Assembly: GCA_023248635.1 (NCBI GenBank)
Contig: JAHFED010000016.1
Span: 69,539-105,716, forward strand
Reading direction: 5' to 3'
Source: Myxococcales bacterium
Lineage (GTDB): Bacteria > Myxococcota > UBA727 > VGSZ01
Length of the DNA: 36,178 nucleotides
Made by a program: the position numbers and the translations under genes. The notes under the pieces were generated by a model. That model was not told the origin of the DNA. It saw only the letters and a list, made by a program, of their open reading frames with translations, and ran no database searches. Shown in pieces: positions 4,733-18,786 of this stretch (positions are counted from its first letter, which is position 1; every line of letters begins with the position of its first letter).

Positions 4733-4956
4733 GATGCGCGTGAAGCGCGCCCGCGGCCCGCGTCCGGCTCCGCCGGCGCGGGGGGAGGTCTGCACCAGAG
4801 CTCCCAGAAGAGCATCTCCGACGGCGATGAACGAGACCGCTCCGCGGTCGAAGTTCAGCGAGATCGGGGATGAGCAGCTGCTGGGGCTCGATGATCGATG
4901 GGTGCCGCGTGGGCCGGCGCGCCCACGCTGACCGCGCGGGCCCGCTACAGGAGAAC

Positions 4957-5315
4957 GAAGCAGGCACAGACGTTTTCTTCCAGGCGTCGAAACAGCTCCG
5001 AAGGACCAGAGTGGGTGAACGAATCACCATCACTCTTGGGGCATCGGATGCCTCACCGGCCCACCGGGGGAGCAGCTTCAATTGCAGCTCCCTCCACGGC
5101 GGTCGGCGTCGTGGCCTCAGCGAGGGAGCTGCAATTGAAGCTGCTCCCCCGAAGTGGGCCAAGAACAGGCATCCTTGCGGAGGATGTCAGGCGGGTGTCC
5201 AGGTCGACGCAACATCGACCTTGTGCGCGAGGCACAACGGCTGAGCCGTTACCCACTCTGATCCTTCGAAAAACCTGTTCGACGTCGTCAAAGAAATCGC
5301 CTGTGCGTGCTCCTT
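4957..5315 (-). ncRNA. retron msr-msd RNA, copy A (distal downstream)
   Basis: A 359-nt unit, read on the minus strand like the reverse transcriptase. Its ends (4957-about 4995 and about 5272-5315) are imperfect inverted repeats, as expected for a1/a2, each holding the ACAGACG/ACAGGCG core. An inner pairing GAGTGGGT...ACCCACTC extends this closing stem. Just inside a1, the minus strand reads CAGCCG, with a candidate branching G at 5241. Three msr hairpins follow: TTGTGC/GCACAA, GGTCGA/TCGACC and CATCC/GGATG. The msd stem has arms 5065-5094 and 5122-5151, exactly complementary over 30 nt, around a 27-nt loop (5095-5121). The arm centre contains CAATTG. The msr and loop match copies B and C, but the stem does not. 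Confidence 0.88.
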
Positions 5316-5343
5316 CTCTCTCTTCAGTTCAGTAACCAAAAAT

Positions 5344-5700
5344 AGCAGACACAGACGTTTCCTTCTACGGCGTCGAAGCAATCGGAAGGACCCGGAGTGG
5401 GTGAACGAATCACCATCACTCTTGGGGCATCGGATGCCTCACCGGCTCGCCGGGGGAGCACCCCACGGTGCTGCTCCCTCCACGGCGGTCGGCGTCGTGG
5501 CCTCAGCGAGGGAGCAGCACCGTGGGGTGCTCCCCCGAAGCGAGCCAAGAACAGGCATCCTTGCGGAGGATGTCAGGCGGGTCTCCAGGTCGACGCAACA
5601 TCGACCTTGTGCGCGAGGCACAACGGCTGAGCCGTTACCCACTCCGAATCCTTCAAGAAAACTGTTCGACGCTGTAGAACAAATCGTCTGTGCGTGCTCC
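5344..5700 (-). ncRNA. retron msr-msd RNA, copy B (proximal downstream)
   Basis: A 357-nt unit starting 29 nt after the reverse transcriptase stop on the minus strand. The outer a1/a2 arms (5344-about 5380, about 5664-5700) pair across GCACGCACAGACG and the TTCTAC-GCGTCGAA segment. The inner GAGTGGGT/ACCCACTC stem matches copy A. The candidate branching G is at 5627. The msr hairpins and the 27-nt apical loop (5481-5507) match the other copies. The msd arms 5451-5480 and 5508-5537 are perfectly complementary over 30 nt. Compared with copy A, a central 12-nt block of each arm is replaced, with matching replacement in the opposite arm; the flanking GGGGGAGCA and GCTCCCTC are kept. Confidence 0.88.
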
Positions 5701-5729
5701 TTTCTCTTCAACAATCAATCACTCGAAAA

Positions 5730-7181
5730 TCAGTTGGTGGCGGCGGCTTCGAGGGCGTCGATTTCGACGAGGAAAGCGCGGCCTTTCACGGGATCGCTCT
5801 GAAACACGAAAGCTGCCAACCCCCGCAGGTGGGCCAAGCTCTCGCCTTCTTTGATCTTGCCCTTGGCGCGGTTGTGCAGCGCCGCCCGCAGGGTGCGCAC
5901 GACTTCGCGGGGAACACGGGTGGCCGACGTCGACGGCGACGACGCTGTCGCTTTGGGCCTCTTGTTGATGATGAGGCCAGTGACCACCTGACGCGCGCCA
6001 CCGCCCATGACAGTCGTCTTCTTGGCGTTGAGCTCGAAGCCTTCGCCTTGCAACACCACCCGCACACCATGGAGCAAAGATCCGATGGGTGCCGTCGACG
6101 ACGCGTCTTTCTTCTTGAAGGAGAAAGTGAGGTCGTCGGCGTAGCGGGTGTAGGTGCAGCCGAGCTTGCGGCCGAGGCCGGCCATGCGCTTGTCGAGCCG
6201 CACGCACAGCGCGTTGGTGATCATCGGCGACGCAGGCGATCCCTGGGGCAAGGCGCGCGCACCAGTGGCGACGTAGAGCGTCTGGCCGCGGAAATCGACG
6301 ACGTCGCGGGGGCTCTCGGTGCAGAGGAGCGCGACCAGCGTGGCCACTTGCTCGGGCAAGCCGGACTTGCGCAGCAGTCCTTTGACGCGCGGCAGAGTGA
6401 TGGTGGGAAAGAAGTCTTTGATGTCGACTTTGACGACGACGTCGGCGCCGGCGTGCACCAGGGCGTTGGTCTGGATGCTCTTTTTCGCGATGAAGCCATG
6501 GGCCGCCGAGTGCACCGTCAGGCGGTCGAGCAGGTTGTCGAGCAGATGACGCTGCACGCGCTTCAGGTCGGTCTTCGGTGCGGTGATTTGGCGGGCGCTG
6601 CCGTCGCGCTTGGGGATGGTGAAGCGGATGTAGTGGGAGCCCGTGTCGACGTCTTTGTGAAAGGCCAGCCAACGCAGACGCGAGATCGACAGACCCAAAG
6701 CCGACGCCAGCTTCGTCGGCGTCGTCCAGTCCGGGAGCCCGAGATCTTTGGCGCGGTCTTCGCGGCGTTCGATGTCGAACTTATCGATGTCGACAAGGTC
6801 GTTGTAAAAGACAGCGGACCCAAGATGATTGATGTGGGTTGCATGATAAGCCTGCCAGGCCAGCTTGCGCAGACGACGCTTCTCTGAGGCTTCAGCTTTC
6901 TTTCTTTCTTTGTACGACTTTTTCTGCGCGTCGGTGAGGGTCGCAGGATCCTCGGTCACCGCCAAGCCTGCCGCCACCAGTTGGGCGTGCAGCCACTTCT
7001 CGATGCCGCCAGCTTCATCGATGTCGGCCTGCCTCTTCACCCGGGCAGCCTGCTCGATCACCCGACGCTCACGCTCGGCTTCGGCGATCTTCGCCAGCAA
7101 AGGCGTCGGCGCCACCTCGAGGGCAGCGGTCTCTCGGACTTGGGGCGCATCGGCGCGCAGGAGGGAGTCGCTGGGCTGCAT
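5730..7181 (-). CDS. ret: retron reverse transcriptase
   Basis: A 483-aa retron-type RNA-directed DNA polymerase, close in length to the long-N-terminus myxobacterial enzymes such as Mx162. Visible motifs, numbered from the chosen start: a basic, helical N-terminal extension (about 1-170); the finger strand IRFTIPKRDG; HGF followed by the retron-diagnostic NALVH (239-243); catalytic VKVDIKDFFP (Asp253); QGSPASPMITN; the YADD catalytic box (347-350); and VTG in QVVTGLIINKR (400-402), the retron thumb motif. It would prime from the 2'-OH of a branching G in the msr RNA. I chose the ATG at 7181 because TGAGGT lies 6 nt before it. Alternative starts are the ATG at 7193 and a TTG at 7199. It lies between msr-msd copy C upstream and copies B and A downstream. 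Confidence 0.95.
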   Translation of the reverse strand: MQPSDSLLRADAPQVRETAALEVAPTPLLAKIAEAERERRVIEQAARVKRQADIDEAGGIEKWLHAQLVAAGLAVTEDPATLTDAQKKSYKERKKAEASEKRRLRKLAWQAYHATHINHLGSAVFYNDLVDIDKFDIERREDRAKDLGLPDWTTPTKLASALGLSISRLRWLAFHKDVDTGSHYIRFTIPKRDGSARQITAPKTDLKRVQRHLLDNLLDRLTVHSAAHGFIAKKSIQTNALVHAGADVVVKVDIKDFFPTITLPRVKGLLRKSGLPEQVATLVALLCTESPRDVVDFRGQTLYVATGARALPQGSPASPMITNALCVRLDKRMAGLGRKLGCTYTRYADDLTFSFKKKDASSTAPIGSLLHGVRVVLQGEGFELNAKKTTVMGGGARQVVTGLIINKRPKATASSPSTSATRVPREVVRTLRAALHNRAKGKIKEGESLAHLRGLAAFVFQSDPVKGRAFLVEIDALEAAATN

Positions 7182-7210
7182 GCAAGACCTCATACCCAAA
7201 GAGTCAGAAG

Positions 7211-7597
7211 GGAGCAGGAACAGACGCTGTCTTCATCGACGTCGAAACAGAAACGAAGCGGAGCGGGGCGAAGAGATCACCATCACTCTTGGGGCATCGG
7301 ATGCCTCACCGGCTCGCCGGCCGATGACCCCTCGGGGTCACCGGTTCCACGGCGGTCGGCGTCGTGGCCTCAGCGAACCGGTGACCCCGAGGGGTCATCG
7401 GCCGAAGCGAGCCAAGAACAGGCATCCTTGCGGAGGATGTCGGGCGGGTTTCCAGGTCGACGCAACATCGACCTTGTGCGCGAGGCACAACGGCTGAACC
7501 CTTCGCTCCCACTCCATTCAAGACGCGCAAGCGTCTTGAATATCAAATACTGCAAATCCTATCCGACCTCGAAGAAGAAATCGTCTGTGCGTGCTCC
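7211..7597 (-). ncRNA. retron msr-msd RNA, copy C (canonical, upstream of RT)
   Basis: A 387-nt unit in the usual retron position, between the SWIM gene stop (27 nt away) and the reverse transcriptase start (29 nt away). The outer a1/a2 arms, 7211-7243 and 7564-7597, pair across GGAGCA...ACAGACG and continue with TTC-TCGA-GTCG. The inner closing stem pairs GGAGCGGGGCGAAG with CTTCGCTCCCACTCC; it differs in sequence from A and B but still pairs. The candidate branching G is at 7494. msr hairpins lie at 7455-7473 and 7474-7490. The msd arms 7318-7347 and 7375-7404 are perfectly complementary and largely unlike those of A and B. The 27-nt loop (7348-7374) is the same. Only this copy has an extra 11-bp hairpin at 7516-7541. 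Confidence 0.9.
7516..7541 (-). other. extra hairpin unique to msr-msd copy C
   Basis: A perfect 11-bp stem (ATTCAAGACGC with GCGTCTTGAAT) with a 4-nt loop lies between the a1 arm and the branching-G region. It accounts for most of the roughly 28-nt length excess of copy C. No U-run follows on the minus strand, so it is not an obvious terminator. It may mark or regulate the copy that is co-transcribed with the reverse transcriptase. Confidence 0.7.
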
Positions 7598-7624
7598 TTT
7601 CTCTGTCAAAATAATATCAAGAAA

Positions 7625-9478
7625 CTACTGGCGGTCGGCGTCGACGAAGCCTTCTGTTATCAGGGCTTCCAGTCTCTGAAAATAGGCGTCGCGGGCCTCG
7701 GAATCACTGTCGAACCAAATGCGCTGGTGGCGCGGCGGCGCGAGGGCCAATCCCCAGGAGAGCAGGACCACTTTGTCGTCGAGGGACACGCGGGTGACCG
7801 TCTGTTTCCCGCTCAGGCCATCGCGCTTCAAGAAGGTGCGGGTCTCGGCGCGGATGAGCTTGCGGCCCTCGGGCGTGTCGCGCTTCTTTTCGTCGTCGGC
7901 GCGCTTGCGGCCCCAGGCCACGCGCAAGGCGATCATGTGCTCGCAGGGTCCTTCGCGCATCGCTGAGCGGCGGAAGCGGGGGCAGGTGCAATGGGCCTCA
8001 GAAACGCGGCCTTCGACGTCGGAGGTGAAGCGCGGTGCATAGGTGCGCTGCTGGGCTTCGTCTTTGACCTCGCCGTGCACCTCGACGCCGTCGCTGCCTT
8101 GATCGTGCAGCTTCACCAACTGCACCGCGTTCTTCTTGGCCAACAGGCGGTGCGCCTCGCGCTCGCGTTCGGAACCAAAGGCCGTGACCTCGTCAGCGAC
8201 AGCAGCGCCGAAGATGCTGCGGGGGCGATACACGCCGTCGGCGATGTCGAACACGATCTGTCCGCGCAGACAGAGCCGCTGCACCCCGCCCCTCACCTGA
8301 TCGACAGGCTTCTTGGTGGCGGCGACCAAGGCTTCGAGAGTCTGGGGTCCATCACCGACCAGCTTCTTCTCGAGCGCGTTGATCAGGGTTTCGTCGTCGA
8401 CGGTGGGCATCAAGGCGTCGAAGGCGACCGCTGAGGCCCAGCTCGATTCCGTCCAGCCCGACAGACCCAGAGTCAAAGTCGCGTTGGGCAATTCGACGAC
8501 GAAGAAGGAGGGGAGTCCGGCTCCCAAGAGGTGCACGCGCATGCCGTTGGCGTGGGGCAAGAGGCGCTGCAGCAGAGCAAGCCGGGTGCGGCCGAAGATG
8601 CGGGCCACGCGTGGCGCTTTGCCAGCAAAGACGGGTCCGTGGCTCTCGAGCACCAGCTCCCAAGGCTCGAGGACGACGCGGGGCCGTTCGCCGGGGATGA
8701 GCTCGAAGCGGATGGAGCGCGGCGGGTTCTTTGCCTTGCGGAGGCGCAGCTGCAGCAAGATGTTGTAGAGGTCGATGGGGGCCAGCGTGCACGACGTCGA
8801 CGGTAACGTGGCCGCCGATTGCACCTGCAGGAAACCGCGCAACCACGCATGCGGCACGTCGTAGTGACGCTCGACGGGCGCGCGCTGGGCAGTGGCCGTC
8901 GCCGTCGACGTCGCTTCGATCTGCAGGGGGCGATAGGCCGGCACGGACTCGAAGCTCGCGCCGGCCTCTTTGGAAGCGTCGAGAAACACGGTGCCGTGGT
9001 TGGCCTTGCGCTCGGCGAAGCTCGGGTTCTTGAAGGCGAGTCGCGCGTAGGCGCTTTCGTCCTTGGAAAAGACCTCGAGCGAGATCTCATCGGGGTGAAC
9101 GGTGAAGAGGGGATCGAGCTCCCGCGTCGTCGACTCGGCTTTGAACGCTTCTTCGAGAAAGGCCTTCTGCGCTTCCCAAATCGCTGCCGTCGCCTTCTTG
9201 CCCTTCTTCATCAAGAAGGCGAGGTAGGCGGCGCGATCGCGGCCTTTGTAGCGCAGATCGCTGTCCTTGATGGCCATCGTCGTCGCCAGCGCGTCGCGGA
9301 ACAATGCGGGATCGAGCACCTTGGCCAAGAAGCCGACGGCGCTGCTCTGGCCGCCTTGATCGAGTGCCAGCGCCAGCGTGGTGCCGTCGACCCCGGCCAC
9401 GAGCGCGGACTCACGCGGATAGCGCACTGCCACCGCGGTGGCCGCCGTCGCCGTCTTCGCCGCCATCGTCGCCGTCAT
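7625..9478 (-). CDS. SWIM zinc-finger protein with C-terminal WGR-like domain, retron partner
   Basis: A 617-aa protein, the last protein gene before the retron RNA. Its start overlaps the stop of the giant gene as ATGA (9475-9478), a sign of translational coupling. Around residues 495-516 is a SWIM zinc finger, HCTCPRF...CEHM, the CxC-x(n)-CxH pattern used for nucleic-acid or protein binding. After it, about 548-612, a segment ending with SWGLALAPPRHQRIWF and a conserved helix resembles a WGR domain, the nucleic-acid-binding fold also present at the operon start. The N-terminal half is Ala/Leu-rich and unassigned. Family knowledge suggests DNA or RNA contact; a role in recognising msDNA or its target is my inference. 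Confidence 0.85.
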   Translation of the reverse strand: MTATMAAKTATAATAVAVRYPRESALVAGVDGTTLALALDQGGQSSAVGFLAKVLDPALFRDALATTMAIKDSDLRYKGRDRAAYLAFLMKKGKKATAAIWEAQKAFLEEAFKAESTTRELDPLFTVHPDEISLEVFSKDESAYARLAFKNPSFAERKANHGTVFLDASKEAGASFESVPAYRPLQIEATSTATATAQRAPVERHYDVPHAWLRGFLQVQSAATLPSTSCTLAPIDLYNILLQLRLRKAKNPPRSIRFELIPGERPRVVLEPWELVLESHGPVFAGKAPRVARIFGRTRLALLQRLLPHANGMRVHLLGAGLPSFFVVELPNATLTLGLSGWTESSWASAVAFDALMPTVDDETLINALEKKLVGDGPQTLEALVAATKKPVDQVRGGVQRLCLRGQIVFDIADGVYRPRSIFGAAVADEVTAFGSEREREAHRLLAKKNAVQLVKLHDQGSDGVEVHGEVKDEAQQRTYAPRFTSDVEGRVSEAHCTCPRFRRSAMREGPCEHMIALRVAWGRKRADDEKKRDTPEGRKLIRAETRTFLKRDGLSGKQTVTRVSLDDKVVLLSWGLALAPPRHQRIWFDSDSEARDAYFQRLEALITEGFVDADRQ

Positions 9479-12400
9479 TGCGTCACCTCGGTGCTCTTCT
9501 TGGCGCTCAGAGCAGCGCCCTTCCAGCTCGGCAGGGCATCGGTGGTTTTCTTCTGACGCCCACGCGCCGTCTGCAAGCGCATCGAGCGTCGCAGCGCACG
9601 ATAGGCGGCTTTGCGCGTGGCCTCGTCGAGCCCATCGTCTCTGGCCAACTCCGAGAGCTTCTCGCGCACGCCGTCGTCGTCGGCCCTCGACAGGGCATCG
9701 ATGATCGGCCGGCGGGTCCCGGCGTCGTCAACGGCGGTGGTCAGCGCCTCGGTGTCTGTGCGCAGCAGCAAGGGGAGCAAAGCCGGTCGGGCCGAATCAT
9801 CGCTCAAGAGTGAAGGATCTCTCGGCATGACGTCGACGAAGCGGTGGGGATCTCGGGCTGCCGCTCCCTTGCCGCGGTTCCAGGCATCTTTGCCAGCGAG
9901 AGCGCGTAGGGACTGGGCGGCGGCCACCCGGCAACCGATCTCGGGATCGCCCAGGGCCGTGACGAGCAACTGAATGTCCGTCGTCGTGCCACCGCGCCCA
10001 AGGGCTGAGAGCAGAGTTCGTCGGACGGCGGCCGGCAGATTTTCGCCGAGGCGACTGCGGGCCAGTCCAGCAGCGCGGGCGACGTCGACGTGGGCGGCGG
10101 ATCCGATCACAGCAATCCAAGCGGCCTGACGGGGAGCGTCTTTGTCGCTGTCGCCGCCGTCGTCGTTGCTCTTTTTCAGCAGGGCCTCGCTGGCCAAGAG
10201 CGCGTCGGCCAGCACCTTGGCGTCGGGCGAAGACCAAGTGCGGCCCGCGACGACGGCAGCGCCTTCGGTGACCGCCGCGTTTCCTTTGGCAGCGGTGCTG
10301 GTGCTCGCCAACAAGGCCACCAAAGGCGGCAGCGGCAGGGTCTCACGGCGCAGCAGGCCCACGCGCAGGCGCGCCCGCAGCTCGTCGTCGTCGAGGGAGG
10401 ATAAGCGCGGCAGCAGCACGGCGGCGTCGCCTTCGGCAGCGAGGTAATTGGCGGCCTTTTTCTTTTCTTCGCCGTTGTTAGCGTTGTCGAGCACGTGGAG
10501 CTCGACGCGGGTGCGGTCCTTGGGAAAGAGCTTGTCCAGGGCCGTGCGCGCGGCCTTGCGGACGTCGACGTTCCAGCTCTCGAGCACTTCGGCGAGGGCG
10601 CCTTCAGCGTCGGTGACCCCGAGGGCGGCGACGGCCTCACAAGCTTCTTTCAGCACGTCGTCGCCGGGCTCGTTGTCGAGCACGCGCACCAGCGTGGCCT
10701 TCGCCCGGTCGTCACCGATGGCCCGCAGCGCGCGCACGGCGCGGTAGGCACGAAGGTTGTCGTCGTCGAGAGCGCCGGCCTCCACGCGATCCCAGATGCG
10801 CGTGCGGGCGGCCATGTCGCTGAGACTGTTGTGCAAACGTCCCAGGCCTTCGAGGGCAGCGCGCATCATGTCGGGCTCGGCCGGTGCTTCTTCGGTGCCG
10901 CCGTCGACGATGAGCTCGAGCTCCGGCAGCGCTCGGGCATCGCCCAAGCGACCCACCGCGACCAGCGCGCGGCTGCGATCGTCGCCTTCGCCGGCGCGCG
11001 ACACGAGCAGCAAGGGCACCAAGGTGAGGGCGGCGGCGTGGTGACCGGTGGCTTGGGCGAGACCTTCGCAAGCACCCAGCGTCAACTCACGTGCACCCTT
11101 CTTGACGACGTCCTCCAGGGGTCCGGGTGGCGACGCGGTCTTGCGCGCGCGCTCGGCGTAGCAGGCAACGGCAGCGGTACGGACCTCGATCTCGCGATCG
11201 GAAAACGCGGCCACGACGGCGTCGTCGGCAGCAGATCCTCTGCCAGACCAGGCCAGCTCTTTGAGCGCGAGCTTCTTGGTCTCGGGATCTTTGCTCTTCA
11301 CAGCGATGGGGAAGAAGGCGGCAGCGCGGATGTCGTCGCGCTTCTTCTTGGTCTTGCCGACGACGAGGAGCCCGGCTTCGAAAGCCGCAGCGCGCACGCT
11401 CGCGTCGTCGTGGTCGCAGAGCCGGGCCAGGGTCTCGAGGGTGGCCTGGCGCTTGGTCGCACCGAGGCAGCGGGCCAAACCTGGAAGATCTTTGGCGCCG
11501 GGTTCGTCGACGAGGGCCAGCAAAGCCGCCGTCGCCGCCTTGTCTCCCAGCAAAGCGAGAGCCGCTCTCGCGCGCCGAACGTGGTTGTCGTCTTCGCCTT
11601 TGGCCTGGGCAATCAAGGCGTCGACGCAGCGCTCGGTGTGCCTTTCTTCTTGACGCTCGGCGAGGATCTCAGCGGCGCGCAACACCAGCCCCTTGTGCTC
11701 GCTGTCGAGGGCCGCAGCGAGGGCGTCGCCGATGGATTTGTCGTCTTTGCGCTTGGCGAGTTGCTCGACCACCGACAAACGCAGGTCGTCGTGCTCGCTC
11801 CTCAGCGCCTGCACCAGGTGAGCGATGGACCCCTTCGCCGCCCTCTTCTCCAACGTCTCGAAAGCGAGCTTCCGCACTTCGGCGACGGGCGAATTGAGGG
11901 CCTGCTCCACGCGGCTGGTCTGTCCCCGTTCGGCCAACTCATCGAGCGCGGCCTTGGCGACGTCGGAGGCCGGCACCCGCAACGCAAGCGCGAGGGCGTC
12001 GTCGACGGAGGCGCCGGTGGCCGCAAAGAGCTTCTTCAAGCCCGCGAGAGCGGCCTTGCGCACCAGGTGCTGGCCGTCGTCGAGAGCGCGGGTCAGCGCC
12101 GGCAACGCGGCTTCGCGACCAACCCCTTGGGGCATCGGATGAGAGCCCAGCTCGACGATGCGGTCGACGGCGTCGCGGCGCACGCGTTGGGCGTCGTCGC
12201 CCGAGGTGGCCTGGCGCAACAAGCCGACGTAGGCGCCGAAGGCCAGCAGGCGCAGGCGCAGTTGTTCCTCGGGAGAGAGCTTGCTGGGCGTCGGCGAAGC
12301 CGGAGCGGCACCGGGCGTGCGATCGGATCCCGGTGAGAACACGCGACGCAAGAAGCCTTTGACCCGGCTGGCAGGGGGAGCGCCGGAGTCGTCGGCGCGG

Positions 12401-15400
12401 GGGCGGTTGTCCGGCGTCCACGGCGACGTCAACGACTTCATCTTCACCGCGTCTTCGGCGGCTTTGAAGAAGGTCTTGGGCGTGGCCTTGTGCAGCAATG
12501 CCGACGCTGCCGCGTAACGCTGCTCGGGCACCGGGCTGCCAAGGGCTTCGGCCAGGGACACCATCAGGCGCGCGCGGGCTGCTTCATCCGGCCAGCCCTT
12601 CATGTCGGCGACCTTCTCCGGCTTTTCGGGCCCCAGCACCTCGACCAGGTGAGCCGTGTAGGCGTCGACGTCGGAGCGCAACTCGAGGGCCCGGGCCGCG
12701 GCGTAACGCACCTCGGGGCGAGCGGCCGACAACGACGCTGCCAGCAAGGTCGGGGAGTCGCCGCGACGGGCCAACAAGAGGTCGTGCGAAAGCACGATGG
12801 AAAAGACCAGCTCTTCGAGCTCGCGGCTGTCGTCGTCGAGCCCCTGCAGCAGTCCCGCGTAGCCTTCAGCACCAAAGGCCGAAAACGAGAGCACAGCACC
12901 CCGGCGAATGGCGAGGTTCTCGTGGCGCAAGGTGCCGACGAGCACGGGCAGACAGCGCGCGTCGCCGAGGCGGGCCAGACCTTCGCCAGCCCAAGAGCGC
13001 ACCCACACATCCTTGTGGCCGACGGCTTCGAGCAGGTAGCCCTCGTCGCCACGACGACAAGCCGTGGCCAGGCCGCGGGCGGCTTCTTCGCGCAGGCCAG
13101 CGTCATCGTCCTTCATCAAATCGGTGGCGAGGTATTTGACCGTCGAAGGCTTGCCGAGGGTGGCGATGGCCGCGGCGGCCCGACGACGAAGCTGGGCCAC
13201 ATAGTCCGCGGGATAGAGGCGCAGCAGCTCGTCCTTTGACGAAATGATGAGCTTCATGGCATCGAGAAGATTGTCGTCTTTGCGGAGCGCCAACAGCTCG
13301 CCAGCGCGCACTTTGACGTCGTGGTGCTTGGCCACGAGCCCAGTGATCAGGGGACCGTTTTCGTTGGGCAGCAGCACATCGAGGGCTTCGAGAGCGGCGA
13401 TGCGGGCGCTGTGGTCCTCGTCGAGGATCTGCTTGATGAGAGGCGAGCGCACTTCATCGGGTCTACAGCGCCGTGCACCCTTGGCAGCCAGTGCCCGCAA
13501 CGACGCCAGGGTCGAAGCCAGTCCCGCCAGGTGGGCTTCGGCGTTGTCGACGTCGTGCTTTCTCTTGCCGCTGTCGTCGGTGGGATTGCGGCGCTTGACC
13601 AGGCCTTCATAGGCCGTCGTGGCCACCCCGGCGTCGAGGTCGGCGATGGCCCGCAGGGTGTGTCCTTCGGCCCAGCTCTCGTTGATGCTGAGCAGCTCGT
13701 CGACGGCACGGCGGCGCGTATCGGCGAAGCGTCCTTGCAAGGCACGCACGAGCGCAGGCTCTTTGCTGCCGGTCGCGAAGGTCCACAGCGTCTTGAAGGC
13801 CTCACCGCGCACCTTGGCGCTCTCGTCTTCGAGGGCGTCTTGCAACAGCGCTTCATGCTCGGCGGTCTTGCCCCCCTCGGCGGATTTCAGCAGCGCCTCG
13901 AGGCCACGCACGCGAATGTCCTCGTGGGACGAGCGCAAAGCGACGTCGGCGACGGCCCGCTTGTCACTCTCACCGGCCGCGAAGGCGTCGAAGGCGGCGG
14001 CGCGCACGGGGGCGGCAGCGTCGTCGAAGAGCCAGACCAAGCGGGTGCGGGCGTCGTCGTTCTTATAGGCCGCGAGCAAAGTGGCAGCGCTCTTGCGCAC
14101 GTCGGCTTCGGGATGGCGGGTGAGCTGCAACAGAGCGCCGAGGGCCCGCACATCGCCGAGGTTCGCCAACACCCAGGCGCCGCGCATGGCGGTGTCGGGC
14201 AAGCGCGAAGCCAAGGCCAGCAGCAGGGGCCGCTCGTCGTCGACGCCGATGGAGGCAGAGCCGTCTTGGGGGAGCTTTTGCAGGGCGGCTTCGGCTTCGG
14301 CGTCGTCGATCTTTTTCGCGGGATTGCCGCTCTCGAGCTGGGCCACGCGGCGCCCGATCTCGATGCTGCGCCGCCCGAAGGACGCGTCCTTTTTCAAGAA
14401 GGCCAGGGGCTTGCGCAGCAGGGTCGCCAGCGTGAACGCGCGCTCGCGCGTGGTGAGGTCGTCGTCGTCGAAGGCGCGGGCAAAGAGATCGGAGAGCGCG
14501 GGATCGCGGTGGTGGCCGAGCAGCGCGGCTCGGATGAGGGCGTCGAGGCGCACAGTGGCATTGCCGCGCAAGAGTCCGGTGCGCAGGGCCTCGGTGCGCT
14601 CCTTGGAAACCTGAAGCAATGCCTCAAGAGCGATGGCGGCGACGGCGGCGTCGGAGTCGACCAGCTTCTTGGTCAACAAACCGGGAACGACGGCGCTGCC
14701 GGGCTCTCCTTTGCTGCCGCGCTGCGCGAGCTCCCGCAGAGAACGAACGCGCAGATCGGGGTGACGGCTCTGCAGACCCGCGCGCGGAGCGGCGAAGATG
14801 TCGTCGGGCTCGAGCGTGTGCAGGGCGTCGACGGCGGCGTTGCGCACGGTGGGGGCGGCGTCGTCGACGGCGGTCTTCAACATGCGCCGGGCAGCGCGGG
14901 CCGGCAGTGTGCTTGGATCGCGCGCGGACAATCCGGTGACCACGAGGAGGCGAACCTCGGGCTCTTTGTCGTTCTTGAGGCGATCCTCGAGCAGATGCAG
15001 GGCTTCGTCGTCGTCGAGCCCGGCGAGGTCGTTGATCGCCTCTTCGCGCTTGGGCTTGGCGCCGGTGAAGGCATCCTTGGCGCGCTCAAAGCCGTCGGCC
15101 AGGGTGTGGTTCGAGCCTTCCCACTCGTTTGGAGCGTCAATGTTCTTCTTGCGCACCTTGCGCGCGTCACCCGAGAAAAAGAGGGTGCCTGCCCCCGCTT
15201 TGCCCGGCTTCTCGACGAGGCACAGGCACTGGAAGAGCTCGCCGGCCTCGTCGGTGCGGGGCTTCTTGCGGTCTTCGAGACGCCAGGCGCGGACGCCATC
15301 GCCGCCGACGGAATAGAGCCGATCCTGCGTGGTGCCGTCGACAGCCGCGTCGCCGGAAGACACATGCACGAGCGCGCGCACACCACCGGCGTGACCGGAG

Positions 15401-16035
15401 GAATCGGCCCCGCGCGTCTCACAATCGGGCGCGCCCGTGAGGTACCAAAGACGGATGGTGCCGTCGTCGCCGCCGGAGGCCAGCCGCCCATCGCGGGGCA
15501 AGAAGGCCAGGGCACCCACGCCGCCGTCGTGACCCACCAGCTCCTTGGGAGCAGCAGCGAGATCCGCCCGCGCGAGCACCCGAACGACGCCGTCGTCGCC
15601 GGCAGCGGCGATCTGATTGGCGTCGATGACGATGGCGCGCAGGCGCCGGTTGGACAGCGCGCGCGTTGCCGTGACAGCCAGTGCAGCGTCGACGAGGGCG
15701 ATGGATCCGTCGCGCAGCGCCAGCGCGATGTGCTCGCCGGCAAGGGCGAGAGCCGCGATCGACGCCGCGAGCTTGACCTCGCCGCTGACCTTGCCTTCGT
15801 CGTCGACCTTGCGCAGCACGCCGTCGTCGCCGCCGACGAACCAGCCGGCCTTGCTCACCGCCAGCGCATTGATGGCACAGGGGAGCGCGAGGCTCGCTTT
15901 GGGCTTGTTCGAGACGTGATCGAAGAGAGTGAACAGCGAGTCACCCCGCGCGCGCCGACCGCCAACCGCCAGCAGCCGGGGCGTGGCGGCGAGCGCCTGA
16001 ACCTTCTCGAAGTGACCAAGGAAGGGGGAAGCCAT
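9475..16035 (-). CDS. giant WD40-HEAT repeat protein, retron partner
   Basis: A 2186-aa protein. Residues about 1-290 show WD40-type repeats, best seen in ALAFLPRDGRLASGGDDG followed by TIRLW, and in similar GGDDGV segments; this predicts a beta-propeller. From about 325 to the end the sequence is an almost unbroken alpha-solenoid of HEAT/PBS-lyase-like units. These are about 30-40 aa long with recurring patterns such as VRxxAAxAL, ALxxLLxDxxxxVR and LARLGDARCLPVL. Such solenoids are scaffolds for large partners. It starts 3 nt after the stop of the upstream gene with GGAG in front, and its stop overlaps the SWIM gene start. No enzyme motif is visible. A platform linking msDNA-bound proteins is a plausible inference. 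Confidence 0.85.
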   Translation of the reverse strand: MASPFLGHFEKVQALAATPRLLAVGGRRARGDSLFTLFDHVSNKPKASLALPCAINALAVSKAGWFVGGDDGVLRKVDDEGKVSGEVKLAASIAALALAGEHIALALRDGSIALVDAALAVTATRALSNRRLRAIVIDANQIAAAGDDGVVRVLARADLAAAPKELVGHDGGVGALAFLPRDGRLASGGDDGTIRLWYLTGAPDCETRGADSSGHAGGVRALVHVSSGDAAVDGTTQDRLYSVGGDGVRAWRLEDRKKPRTDEAGELFQCLCLVEKPGKAGAGTLFFSGDARKVRKKNIDAPNEWEGSNHTLADGFERAKDAFTGAKPKREEAINDLAGLDDDEALHLLEDRLKNDKEPEVRLLVVTGLSARDPSTLPARAARRMLKTAVDDAAPTVRNAAVDALHTLEPDDIFAAPRAGLQSRHPDLRVRSLRELAQRGSKGEPGSAVVPGLLTKKLVDSDAAVAAIALEALLQVSKERTEALRTGLLRGNATVRLDALIRAALLGHHRDPALSDLFARAFDDDDLTTRERAFTLATLLRKPLAFLKKDASFGRRSIEIGRRVAQLESGNPAKKIDDAEAEAALQKLPQDGSASIGVDDERPLLLALASRLPDTAMRGAWVLANLGDVRALGALLQLTRHPEADVRKSAATLLAAYKNDDARTRLVWLFDDAAAPVRAAAFDAFAAGESDKRAVADVALRSSHEDIRVRGLEALLKSAEGGKTAEHEALLQDALEDESAKVRGEAFKTLWTFATGSKEPALVRALQGRFADTRRRAVDELLSINESWAEGHTLRAIADLDAGVATTAYEGLVKRRNPTDDSGKRKHDVDNAEAHLAGLASTLASLRALAAKGARRCRPDEVRSPLIKQILDEDHSARIAALEALDVLLPNENGPLITGLVAKHHDVKVRAGELLALRKDDNLLDAMKLIISSKDELLRLYPADYVAQLRRRAAAAIATLGKPSTVKYLATDLMKDDDAGLREEAARGLATACRRGDEGYLLEAVGHKDVWVRSWAGEGLARLGDARCLPVLVGTLRHENLAIRRGAVLSFSAFGAEGYAGLLQGLDDDSRELEELVFSIVLSHDLLLARRGDSPTLLAASLSAARPEVRYAAARALELRSDVDAYTAHLVEVLGPEKPEKVADMKGWPDEAARARLMVSLAEALGSPVPEQRYAAASALLHKATPKTFFKAAEDAVKMKSLTSPWTPDNRPRADDSGAPPASRVKGFLRRVFSPGSDRTPGAAPASPTPSKLSPEEQLRLRLLAFGAYVGLLRQATSGDDAQRVRRDAVDRIVELGSHPMPQGVGREAALPALTRALDDGQHLVRKAALAGLKKLFAATGASVDDALALALRVPASDVAKAALDELAERGQTSRVEQALNSPVAEVRKLAFETLEKRAAKGSIAHLVQALRSEHDDLRLSVVEQLAKRKDDKSIGDALAAALDSEHKGLVLRAAEILAERQEERHTERCVDALIAQAKGEDDNHVRRARAALALLGDKAATAALLALVDEPGAKDLPGLARCLGATKRQATLETLARLCDHDDASVRAAAFEAGLLVVGKTKKKRDDIRAAAFFPIAVKSKDPETKKLALKELAWSGRGSAADDAVVAAFSDREIEVRTAAVACYAERARKTASPPGPLEDVVKKGARELTLGACEGLAQATGHHAAALTLVPLLLVSRAGEGDDRSRALVAVGRLGDARALPELELIVDGGTEEAPAEPDMMRAALEGLGRLHNSLSDMAARTRIWDRVEAGALDDDNLRAYRAVRALRAIGDDRAKATLVRVLDNEPGDDVLKEACEAVAALGVTDAEGALAEVLESWNVDVRKAARTALDKLFPKDRTRVELHVLDNANNGEEKKKAANYLAAEGDAAVLLPRLSSLDDDELRARLRVGLLRRETLPLPPLVALLASTSTAAKGNAAVTEGAAVVAGRTWSSPDAKVLADALLASEALLKKSNDDGGDSDKDAPRQAAWIAVIGSAAHVDVARAAGLARSRLGENLPAAVRRTLLSALGRGGTTTDIQLLVTALGDPEIGCRVAAAQSLRALAGKDAWNRGKGAAARDPHRFVDVMPRDPSLLSDDSARPALLPLLLRTDTEALTTAVDDAGTRRPIIDALSRADDDGVREKLSELARDDGLDEATRKAAYRALRRSMRLQTARGRQKKTTDALPSWKGAALSAKKSTEVTQ

Positions 16036-16038
16036 CGA

Positions 16039-18786
16039 TCACTCCGCAGCGGCAACAGAGGAAACAGACGCAGCGGCCGAGGAGTGGGCGGCGTCGATGG
16101 CACAGAGGGCCTGCAAGCAGGCTTGCCATTCACCGTCGGCGATGGAGGCCGACATTTCTTCGAGCAGGGGACGCACGAGATCGGTGAAAGCCCGGTCTTC
16201 GACGGCGAGGTCGCGCACGATCTGCACGACGCGACGCTTGGCCACCGACGACGAAATGCGCCGGAACGCTCCGTCTTCTTTGGCTTCCATGCAACGGCCC
16301 GGCGGCAGCGCGAACATCACGCGACGCAAGAACCAGCGCAGAGCGTCGTCGTCGGCGAAGCGATCGGAGAGATCGAGCACGGAATTCTTCGGCTTCCACG
16401 TCGACGGAAAAGAGCGGGGCCGGTGTTTCTCCCAGAGCAAGCGCACGGCAAACAGGCGCACCTCGCGGTCCGCCGTCGTCATCAGCCACGCCAAACGTTC
16501 CTGGCCCCCCAGCGTCTTGTAGTGGCGACGAATGAGCTCCATCCCCGCTTCGCGCACGGGACGTCGGCGGGACTCGGTGAGCGGGAACACCACCTGCGGC
16601 AGCAATTCGTCGACGGTGGCCGTGCAGGCAGGATCGGACGCGGGATCGCCAGCCTTGAGCATGGCCTCGAGAGCCAAGCGGCGGACTTCGACGGCGTCGG
16701 TGTCCACGATCTCCCCGAGGCGGGCCATGGCATTCCAGCGGCGCAGCTCGACCTTGGCGATGGCGACGGCGAACTTGCGCACGTCTTCGCGGTTGTCGCG
16801 CAGGCCAGGCCACAAGCGCTCGATGGAGTAGGCCTCGCGCTTGAGCTGCGGCTTGAGGCCGATGAGCTTGGCCTCGGGCTGCTGCTCACCGATCTCGGGG
16901 TGATGACAGCGCAAGAAGGTCTGCGCGAATTTCCGCAGCAGCTCCGCTTCCGTCGACGACAACGCCATCTCGAAGAGCCGGGCTTCGCCCTTTTTCTTGT
17001 CGCCGTCTTCGGAGCCTTCTTGGCCGCCCGGCCCGAGGGCACAAAACTCCGCGGGGCCCATGCTCTCGAGCAGGGTGCGGTTGGCGAACTCCTGCAGCGT
17101 GGTGTCTTTGCGTTTGGCCAGAGCCAACAACCAGGGAATCCCGAGCTGCTTCGGATTCACCAGGTGCTTGTTGGCGAGGATCGAGAGCGCGGGCTCTTGC
17201 AGCACGCGATCGAAGAGCATGCCCTTGACGCGTTCGACGTCGAGACCAGGGAAGCTCTTGGCCTCGCCCAACCAGCCGCCGATCTCGCTGGTGATCTGGT
17301 GGTCTTTGCGCCGCACCATGAGGTCGAGCAACCAGTCGGCGCCGATCTCCTCGGCTCCTTTGCGATCGGCAGCGATCTTCTTGAAGGCGGCAACCGCTTC
17401 GGTCGGAAGGTTGTAGTCGTCCTCGATGCGATCGTCGTCGAGCACGCGCTTCCACAGCGCCGCCGACAGCTGGTGCTTCTTGTCGAGCTTCAAGAAGAGC
17501 TCATGACCGCCGTCGTCGTCGTCGTAGGCGAGGTCGACGATGAGCGCATCACCCAGCTCGTTGGGGGAGAAGGCCTCGAGCAGGGATTTTTCGGCGAAGG
17601 TCTTGAGGGTGTGGACGGCGAGCATGTTCTTCAGCAGCGCCGGACCGAGGTCGCGCGGCTTTTGGACCGTGAGAATGTCCTTGGCGAGGTCGTGCACCTC
17701 TTTGGCGGAGCTGCGCTTGGCGAAGTCGACCAAAGTCGCTGGGGCAATGTCTTTGGCGTTGGCGCGGGCCAGTTCGACGGCGAAGGCGCGGGCGTCTTTG
17801 GCCTTGCTCAACAAGAGCCGCAGGGCGGGTTGGAAGAGGCCGAGGTTGGCGAGCTGGGCATGGGCAAAGGTCGGCGACTTCCGGGCGATCTCGACGAAGA
17901 TCTCGTGGCGCGCTTCGTTGTCGTCGGCGATGAGGGTCTTGACCCACGAGGGTGCGGGCTCCTTGGCCGCGTCGGCGTGGAGCTTCTTGAGCGCGGCCCA
18001 GGCTTGCTTGACGGTGTAGGTGAGGCCGCAACCCTGCACGATGAGCAGCAGAGGCTCGGGCTTCAGCTTCCACGACTCAAAGAGGGCTGCAGGGATCCGA
18101 TGGCTCTTGGCCGCAAAGCTCGAAGTGATGTTTCCGAGGGCGACGCAGTGCTTGTTGCCGGTGCGCAAGCAGAGCTCGGCGGCCCACCAGGGATAGAGCT
18201 CGGGCGCGGCCCGTCCGAGATCGCGCAGGAACCGCCAGGCGCGCCTCTGGAGGTACGTTCGCGTGGCTGGCGACGGCGACGTGTGCTCGGAGCTGACCTT
18301 GCCGTTGACGAGGGCCCAGGTCACCGCGTCGAGCTGATCTTCCGCCAGCTTCGCGATGCGCTTGACCGCGGCGTAGAAGCCGATCTTCCACTCAACCTCG
18401 CCGATGCAGCGCAGGGCCATGGCGCGGCCCGTTGCTCCACCGTTGAGGTAGAGGTCGGTGACGATGTCGGCGGTGGCAAAACGGGGTGGCAGCGGCGCCT
18501 TTTGCGTCAGGAACTTCCGCCACACATCCGTCGACGCTTTGATGCGGGCCTGCTTGCTGCGTTTGCGCCTCGCGGCGTTGAGCTGGTTGACCAGATCGTT
18601 GGTGCGCATCGTGCCCGCGGGAGGATCTTTGAGCGGCGGGTCGGGCTCGTCGAGGAAGCGCTGCAGCAAAGCCGGCGCATTGGGATCGCTCGAGCGCAGC
18701 GCGCGTTCAACGTCGCTGAGGCGCAGGCCCGCGGGCTCACCCTCGTTGCTCTCAGTGCCGGTGTCGTCGTTGTCGAGCTCCGTCAC
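16039..18786 (-). CDS. alpha-solenoid protein of the WGR/HEAT/SWIM retron operon
   Basis: A 915-aa, largely helical protein. It starts with GTG at 18786, nine nt after the WGR gene stop, with AGGTGA as ribosome site, so the two are translationally coupled. The first 75 residues are acidic and probably flexible, followed by a basic AARRKRSKQARIK stretch. TYLQRRAWRFLRDLGR (about 176-191) and the following YPWWAAELCLR form a helical signature that I associate with proteins found beside WGR domains. HEAT-like helices continue to the C-terminus (for example REDVRKFAVAIAKVELRRW, VRRLALEAMLKAGD). No catalytic motif is seen. It sits between the WGR protein and the WD40-HEAT giant and presumably forms a complex with them. 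Confidence 0.8.
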   Translation of the reverse strand: MTELDNDDTGTESNEGEPAGLRLSDVERALRSSDPNAPALLQRFLDEPDPPLKDPPAGTMRTNDLVNQLNAARRKRSKQARIKASTDVWRKFLTQKAPLPPRFATADIVTDLYLNGGATGRAMALRCIGEVEWKIGFYAAVKRIAKLAEDQLDAVTWALVNGKVSSEHTSPSPATRTYLQRRAWRFLRDLGRAAPELYPWWAAELCLRTGNKHCVALGNITSSFAAKSHRIPAALFESWKLKPEPLLLIVQGCGLTYTVKQAWAALKKLHADAAKEPAPSWVKTLIADDNEARHEIFVEIARKSPTFAHAQLANLGLFQPALRLLLSKAKDARAFAVELARANAKDIAPATLVDFAKRSSAKEVHDLAKDILTVQKPRDLGPALLKNMLAVHTLKTFAEKSLLEAFSPNELGDALIVDLAYDDDDGGHELFLKLDKKHQLSAALWKRVLDDDRIEDDYNLPTEAVAAFKKIAADRKGAEEIGADWLLDLMVRRKDHQITSEIGGWLGEAKSFPGLDVERVKGMLFDRVLQEPALSILANKHLVNPKQLGIPWLLALAKRKDTTLQEFANRTLLESMGPAEFCALGPGGQEGSEDGDKKKGEARLFEMALSSTEAELLRKFAQTFLRCHHPEIGEQQPEAKLIGLKPQLKREAYSIERLWPGLRDNREDVRKFAVAIAKVELRRWNAMARLGEIVDTDAVEVRRLALEAMLKAGDPASDPACTATVDELLPQVVFPLTESRRRPVREAGMELIRRHYKTLGGQERLAWLMTTADREVRLFAVRLLWEKHRPRSFPSTWKPKNSVLDLSDRFADDDALRWFLRRVMFALPPGRCMEAKEDGAFRRISSSVAKRRVVQIVRDLAVEDRAFTDLVRPLLEEMSASIADGEWQACLQALCAIDAAHSSAAASVSSVAAAE

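What the first reader, a model, noticed from the sequence alone, without database searches (positions are those of the whole stretch)
5065..7404. Exactly 30-nt msd stem arms swapped between copies with full compensation
Arms 5065-5094/5122-5151, 5451-5480/5508-5537 and 7318-7347/7375-7404 are each perfectly self-complementary over 30 nt. They flank the same 27-nt loop and the same outer sequence. A and B differ in a central 12-nt block; C differs over most of the arm. Length and pairing are held constant while sequence is free, in contrast to the strongly conserved msr. This looks like a constant frame with a variable double-stranded insert, as if the msDNA duplex were diversified bait or specificity sequence.
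Basis: partly seen in the sequence, partly recalled or inferred. Interest (0 to 1): 0.92.

Follow-up and report, generated by a model that had tools for sequence, protein, structure and literature searches.

The report
Retron with three interchangeable DNA stems
This bacterium's retron, a known kind of anti-virus system that copies RNA into small DNA hairpins, carries three copies of its hairpin gene; only the 30-base-pair stem sequence differs between them, and 77 relatives show that stem length and pairing are fixed while stem sequence is nearly free.

Summary
The window holds three perfect 30/27/30 hairpins, the only perfect inverted repeats of 13 nt or more in its 36 kb. They are the msd stems of three msr-msd units on the minus strand of one type XIII retron operon: HEAT915, HEAT2186, SWIM, unit C, RT, unit B, unit A. 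A covariance model found 77 units in 70 of 195 genomes of the phylum. Nearly all keep a 30-bp stem, a 26-27-nt loop and 101-103 nt between fixed anchors. The stems pair by strict Watson-Crick rules with almost no G.U, so the DNA hairpin appears to be what is conserved. Among orthologs both arms change together at about the synonymous rate; msr and loop change 3-5 times more slowly. Two other lineages carry two-unit arrays, again with unlike arms in near-identical frames. In one pair of species the arm types have traded places relative to their flanks. So the 'constant frame, variable duplex' reading is supported. 'Diversified bait' is not shown: orthologous arms drift steadily, and no arm matches phage DNA beyond a shuffled control. 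A modest excess of short palindromes in arms keeps the idea alive. I rate it a new variant of a known kind.

The parts
5065..5094 (-). Unit A, stem arm (30 nt, perfect)
5122..5151 (-). Unit A, partner arm (30 nt)
5095..5121 (-). Unit A, 27-nt loop, identical in A, B and C
5451..5480 (-). Unit B, stem arm (30 nt, perfect)
5508..5537 (-). Unit B, partner arm
5481..5507 (-). Unit B, loop
7318..7347 (-). Unit C, stem arm (30 nt, perfect)
7375..7404 (-). Unit C, partner arm
7348..7374 (-). Unit C, loop
5058..5160 (-). Unit A full msd stem including 7-bp outer stem (5058-5064 with 5154-5160) and AA bulge; counterparts B 5444-5546 and C 7311-7413
4955..5315 (-). Unit A, whole msr-msd with a1 (about 5277-5315) and a2 (about 4955-4992)
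   Evidence: a1/a2 pairing in RNA fold; repeats I6, I8
5342..5702 (-). Unit B, whole msr-msd
   Evidence: fold, model hit 5423-5568
7211..7600 (-). Unit C, whole msr-msd, in the canonical position between SWIM gene and RT
   Evidence: fold, model hit 7290-7435, synteny
5730..7199 (-). Retron reverse transcriptase (489 aa), PADLOC RT_XIII, YADD and VTG motifs
7625..9478 (-). SWIM zinc-finger protein (617 aa), PADLOC SWIM_XIII
9475..16035 (-). WD40 + HEAT-repeat protein (2186 aa), PADLOC HEAT-ARM_XIII
16039..18786 (-). HEAT-ARM_XIII protein (915 aa), weaker WGR_XIII match

Best explanation
This is a type XIII retron of the myxobacterial Mx162 kind in which one RT serves three msr-msd units. SHOWN from sequence: the msr, the loop and the outer frame are conserved; the msd stem is held at 30 bp of near-perfect Watson-Crick pairing; its sequence is largely free; multi-unit arrays carry different arms in almost identical frames. 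INFERRED: (1) The frame is what the RT and the protein partners recognise, so copies served by one RT stay alike. (2) The stem works as a DNA duplex of fixed length, a rigid three-turn rod or ruler in the msDNA-RT-HEAT/SWIM complex, so its length and pairing are selected and its sequence is mostly not. (3) The two arms change together because one arm is recopied from the other by fold-back template switching, so a double change is one event. (4) Array copies therefore drift apart in the arms while the frame is held, and the retron makes three msDNAs that differ only in the duplex. Whether that diversity is itself used (a set of baits) is open.
For: RT, SWIM and two HEAT proteins match type XIII models at E 1e-143 or better, and the same operon order occurs in Sorangium and Myxococcaceae loci. 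77 units in 70/195 genomes; all 77 analysed units with standard geometry keep 30-nt arms and 26-27-nt loops, anchor spacing 101-103, 0-1 mismatch (one has 2); G027 keeps the same total length with no bulge. Pair count over 60 distinct units: 98.9% of cells paired, 39/44 pairs change on both sides, 674 double-changed cells against 155 in shuffles. One-sided G.U changes are nearly absent: 10 cells, 9 of them at the bulge-adjacent pair. Apart from that pair, 21 of 25 mismatch entries over 55 distinct units are A.C in RNA sense, which is G.T in the msDNA strand, against 1 G.T in RNA sense. Both point to pairing selected in DNA, not RNA. Rates in 27 disjoint ortholog pairs: arms 0.153, RT 4-fold sites 0.124, loop 0.040, msr 0.032; 115 double changes against 9 single. 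Paralogs: arms 7-19 of 30 different, loop 0-3 of 26-27, msr 1-4 of 61-75, in six genomes. Template switching is a documented source of one-step compensatory stem changes (PMC8794818). In Retron-Eco1, re-pairing the msd stem (P4) with another sequence restored msDNA yield (PMC11754653).
Against: Arms are not compositionally neutral. Short palindromes are in excess (73 vs 50 in shuffles), each arm is a loose quasi-palindrome (mean self-fold -11.6 vs -8.0 kcal/mol with halves exchanged, 0/1000), and TA/CTAG are strongly enriched in Myxococcaceae arms (9/20 arm clusters vs 0.4% of flanking 30-mers). A pure ruler does not predict these. No biochemical evidence exists here for msDNA production or for a ruler.
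Confidence: 0.6

Rival explanations
1. Diversified bait: each msDNA displays a different 30-bp duplex, and phage DNA-acting enzymes (methyltransferases, nucleases, repressors) that act on one of them release the HEAT/SWIM effectors. Extra units widen the range of phages sensed.
For: A phage adenine methyltransferase acting at GATC triggers two retrons, and its motif lies on the ncRNA of both and in the confirmed RT-DNA of one (PMC12548924). Arms carry an excess of ungapped palindromic 4-mers (73 vs 50, P < 1/1500; 45 vs 30.8 over 12 strict lineages, P 0.001) and 6-mers (24 vs 15, P 0.009); RT-coding and flank controls show none. Array copies have unlike arms in three separate array-bearing lineages, and both arm types persist while changing places between G130 and G132.
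Against: Ortholog arms drift at the synonymous rate without acceleration. No arm match to phage above a shuffled control. Arm B of the window contains no palindromic 4-mer (read from the sequence). The palindrome excess falls to P 0.01 without CCGG/GGCC, and to P 0.05 in the strict set.
Confidence: 0.28
2. Mutational by-product only: the palindrome rewrites itself by template switching, copies A and B are recent duplications, and neither arm diversity nor array number has any function.
For: Double changes dominate even at very low divergence. Quasipalindrome correction is well documented in bacteria (PMC7202029, abstract only) and for RNA stems (PMC8794818). Clustering of changes is not significant once position is allowed for.
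Against: Mutation alone would not hold the length at 30 bp with no indel across the phylum, nor keep mismatches to 0-1 with a bias to msDNA G.T pairs. All three window units keep a complete msr, a1/a2 and fold.
Confidence: 0.1
3. CRISPR- or DGR-like acquisition: arms are inserts taken from, or targeted to, foreign or host DNA.
For: Fixed frame with an exchangeable insert; arms behave as cassettes relative to flanks.
Against: No phage or host source found. Changes are not confined to adenines, and arms diverge gradually among orthologs.
Confidence: 0.02

Closest known systems
Retron Mx162 / Sa163 of Myxococcus and Stigmatella (Retron-Mxa1, Retron-Sau1)
   Same: Same RT class with long N-terminal extension, CAGC priming-guanosine context, long msd hairpin; close ncRNA homologs through Myxococcaceae and Sorangium.
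   Different: The classical loci have one msr-msd per RT; here one RT is accompanied by three units with different stem arms, two of them downstream of the RT.
Type XIII retron (RT + SWIM + HEAT/WGR proteins, PADLOC)
   Same: All four protein families present, in the same order as in relatives.
   Different: Multi-unit ncRNA array. I found no description of such arrays in the library searched, but the defining paper (Mestre 2020) was not held.
Retron-Asa1 / -Squ1 (methyltransferase-triggered)
   Same: Shows that the site content of RT-DNA can decide which phage triggers a retron.
   Different: Single ncRNA, GATC site; no array and no arm diversification described.
Template-switch-maintained RNA hairpins (Monttinen and Loytynoja 2022)
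   Same: Mechanism by which both sides of a stem change in one event.
   Different: There the unit is structural RNA; here pairing follows DNA rules.

Membership tests
Type XIII retron | RT of the type XIII group | tested here: met
   PADLOC RT_XIII E 1.9e-143, far ahead of the next model
Type XIII retron | Associated SWIM and HEAT/WGR proteins in the operon | tested here: met
   SWIM_XIII 3e-144, HEAT-ARM_XIII 0 and 3e-183, weaker WGR_XIII; same order in relatives
Retron | YxDD catalytic motif and VTG of region Y in the RT | tested here: met
   YADD and VTG read in the translation
Retron | msr-msd with a1/a2 inverted repeats and a long msd hairpin | tested here: met
   folds of all three units
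Mx162-like ncRNA | CAGC context of the priming guanosine | tested here: met
   CAGC present in msr of all three units; CAGC is the context given for Mx162/Sa163 in PMC6868368
Retron | Production of branched msDNA with 2'-5' linkage | not testable with these tools
   needs nucleic acid from the organism
Type XIII retron | One ncRNA per RT | tested here: not met
   three units here; two in G104, G130, G132, G184 and probably G180. This is usual practice rather than a stated criterion.
Diversity-generating retroelement | Adenine-specific mutagenesis of a variable repeat | tested here: not met
   arm changes involve all bases
CRISPR-like memory | Inserts derived from phage or plasmid | tested here: not met
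   no match above shuffled control in viral contigs; plasmids not searched

The most novel reading that the evidence does not exclude
Type XIII retrons with ncRNA arrays run a germline repertoire of msDNA baits: one RT and one effector set read several msDNAs that differ only in a 30-bp displayed duplex, and arm turnover by fold-back copying plus array recombination is the diversifying mechanism.
Probability: 0.25. Interest if true: 0.9.

Novelty: new variant of a known kind. Interest (0 to 1): 0.62.

Why it matters
The function of the oldest known msDNA (Mx162, 1984) is, to my knowledge, still unknown. These data say what evolution protects in it: the frame, the stem length and DNA-type pairing, but not the stem sequence. 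They also name natural loci where one RT serves several msDNAs differing only in the duplex, which makes 'does the stem sequence matter?' directly testable by swapping arms between units of the same cell. Because G.U is almost absent and G.T is tolerated in the DNA strand, the family also offers a case where selection on DNA pairing can be told from selection on RNA pairing.

Tried and rejected
Rfam: no family matches the window. Phage origin of arms: 18-mers of A, B and C in IMG/VR; A's 35 hits are equalled by a dinucleotide-preserving shuffle, none extends. Arms elsewhere in the host: only a decayed orphan fragment. A common motif in arms: CACTAC in 5 of 29 arm groups, not above the best hexamer of shuffles. 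Block-wise replacement as a general rule: changes are clustered under uniform placement but not once position-specific variability is allowed for (P 0.11), so I dropped it. CTAG and host-avoided words: true of Myxococcaceae arms (P 0.001) but not of the three window arms. Gapped inverted repeats inside arms: no excess, so the quasi-palindrome signal is carried partly by short ungapped palindromes. Accelerated evolution of arms against synonymous sites: not found in orthologs. Units near more distant type XIII RTs in L017 and L019: not found. Mestre 2020: not in the library.

Full report
What is there. The three 30/27/30 hairpins are exact and are the only perfect inverted repeats of 13 nt or more in the window. 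They lie in three repeated units of about 360-390 nt (families D1 and D2), read from the minus strand. Each unit has a1/a2 outer repeats, an msr with a conserved CAGC context for the priming guanosine, and a long msd hairpin. RNA folds of all three give the same architecture. The plus strand, which is the msDNA sequence, folds as DNA into one continuous hairpin in all three. The RT (5730-7199 minus) is RT_XIII at E 1.9e-143 with YADD and VTG motifs. Upstream of it in the operon come SWIM_XIII and two HEAT-ARM_XIII proteins. Unit C is in the canonical place between SWIM and RT; units B and A follow the RT. The same protein order is found in Sorangium and in Myxococcaceae.

The frame rule across relatives. 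I aligned nine units and built a covariance model, then searched the 195 genomes of the phylum held: 70 have units, 77 hits in all. I fetched these with their RTs. Apart from G027 (no bulge, same total length), every unit analysed has 30-nt arms and a 26- or 27-nt loop, with 101-103 nt between two fixed anchors and at most two mismatches. Two more divergent units (G034, G044) were read but not placed in the fixed geometry. Sequence in the arms is free: 55 distinct arms in 78 units, counting three Sorangium loci.

The stem is conserved as DNA. On 60 distinct units the named structure pairs in 98.9% of cells; 39 of 44 pairs show changes on both sides; double-changed cells number 674 against 155 in shuffles and about 110-155 with slid partners. 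RNA stems usually evolve through G.U intermediates. Here one-sided standard changes occur in 10 cells, nine of them at the pair next to the bulge. Where mismatches occur away from that pair, 21 of 25 entries are A.C in RNA sense, that is G.T in the msDNA strand, against one G.T in RNA sense. These entries are not independent, since several clades inherited theirs. The simplest reading is that pairing in the msDNA is what is selected.

Rates. In close orthologs arm divergence follows RT 4-fold-degenerate sites: 0.056 vs 0.073, 0.101 vs 0.125, 0.165 vs 0.182, 0.209 vs 0.228; loop and msr are several times slower. At larger distances arms exceed 4-fold sites, but those saturate early in GC-rich genomes. 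In 27 disjoint pairs, 115 changed arm positions are changed on both arms and 9 on one. Two independent fixations per pair at the synonymous rate are implausible; copying one arm from the other in one event is the natural explanation. It is documented in bacteria and for RNA stems (PMC7202029, PMC8794818). This step is inference.

Arrays. Two-unit arrays occur in G130 and G132 (one genus), and in G104, G184 and probably G180 (two further genera; in G180 the copies lie at contig ends). They sit in tandem between SWIM and RT, unlike the window's layout, so array formation happened at least twice and probably three times. In every case paralogous arms differ strongly (7-19 of 30 on both arms) while the loop differs at 0-3 positions and the msr at 1-4 of 61-75. 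For equal arm divergence, paralog frames fall in the most similar 1-4% of ortholog pairs. Sharing one RT, or gene conversion of the frame, would both explain this; some msr substitutions are genome-specific and shared by both paralogs. In G130 and G132 the flanks are syntenic (82-91% identical), but the arm type most like G131's is upstream in G130 and downstream in G132, and the type most like G133's is the reverse (z 3.6-5.5 for the main matches, 0.1-2.1 for positional partners). Arms therefore move relative to flanks, most simply by unequal crossing-over of the array. Five array genomes plus the window is a small sample.

Is the sequence used? Against: steady ortholog drift, no phage match, no shared motif. 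For: palindromic 4-mers in arms exceed dinucleotide-preserving shuffles (73 vs 50, z 4.2), as do 6-mers (24 vs 15); RT-coding and a1-flank controls do not. The signal weakens without CCGG/GGCC and in a strict set of 12 lineages. CTAG, among the most avoided tetramers of these genomes, is in 9 of 20 arm clusters but in 0.4% of flanking 30-mers; the window's own arms lack it. Each arm also folds on itself better than half-exchanged controls. A phage methyltransferase acting at GATC triggers two other retrons whose ncRNAs carry GATC (PMC12548924), so site content of msDNA can matter. I put a functional bait repertoire at about one in four.

Verdict. The functional reading remains a testable possibility. 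The find is a new variant of a known system: a type XIII retron with several msDNA templates per RT that differ only in a length-fixed duplex. The literature search covered open-access papers only, so an earlier description of such arrays cannot be excluded.

Noticed in passing
G000:C64:44631-44713 (L203:4632-4713; L005): Decayed orphan piece of the msd, 84% identical to unit B over 86 columns. Its homology starts at CCTGTTCTT, close to where I infer the msDNA 3' end, and runs out at or just beyond the loop. It may be a retro-inserted msDNA piece, as reported for Nannocystis exedens (Lampson 2002, known here only from its reference-list entry).
   Followed up: partly
arms of Myxococcaceae units (L060-L125): TA steps 2.1 times expected in arms versus 0.24-0.29 in flanking DNA, AA depleted, CTAG in 9 of 20 arm clusters against 0 of 77 upstream flanks. 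Arms are built from words the host genome avoids.
   Followed up: partly
all units, arm positions 21, 23, 25, 30: The single mismatch per stem is nearly always G.T in the msDNA strand (A.C in RNA sense), most often at position 25.
   Followed up: partly
5065-5094, 5451-5480, 7318-7347: Each arm is itself a loose palindrome centred near its middle (self-fold z -4.3, -3.9, -3.5 for A, B, C), so the duplex has approximate dyad symmetry.
   Followed up: partly
7516-7543: Unit C has an extra hairpin (TTCAAGACGC...GCGTCTTGAA) between a1 and msr that A and B lack.
   Followed up: no
L017 (Polyangiaceae Prado144), 9870-10012: A complete type XIII protein operon with only about 140 nt between SWIM and RT matches and no recognisable unit there or downstream; its ncRNA must lie elsewhere or differ.
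   Followed up: partly
L210-L220, L222: A second group of RT_XIII-like RTs carries short msd hairpins (13-14 bp stem, 29-32-nt loop); stem length is again held while arm sequence varies with compensation.
   Followed up: partly
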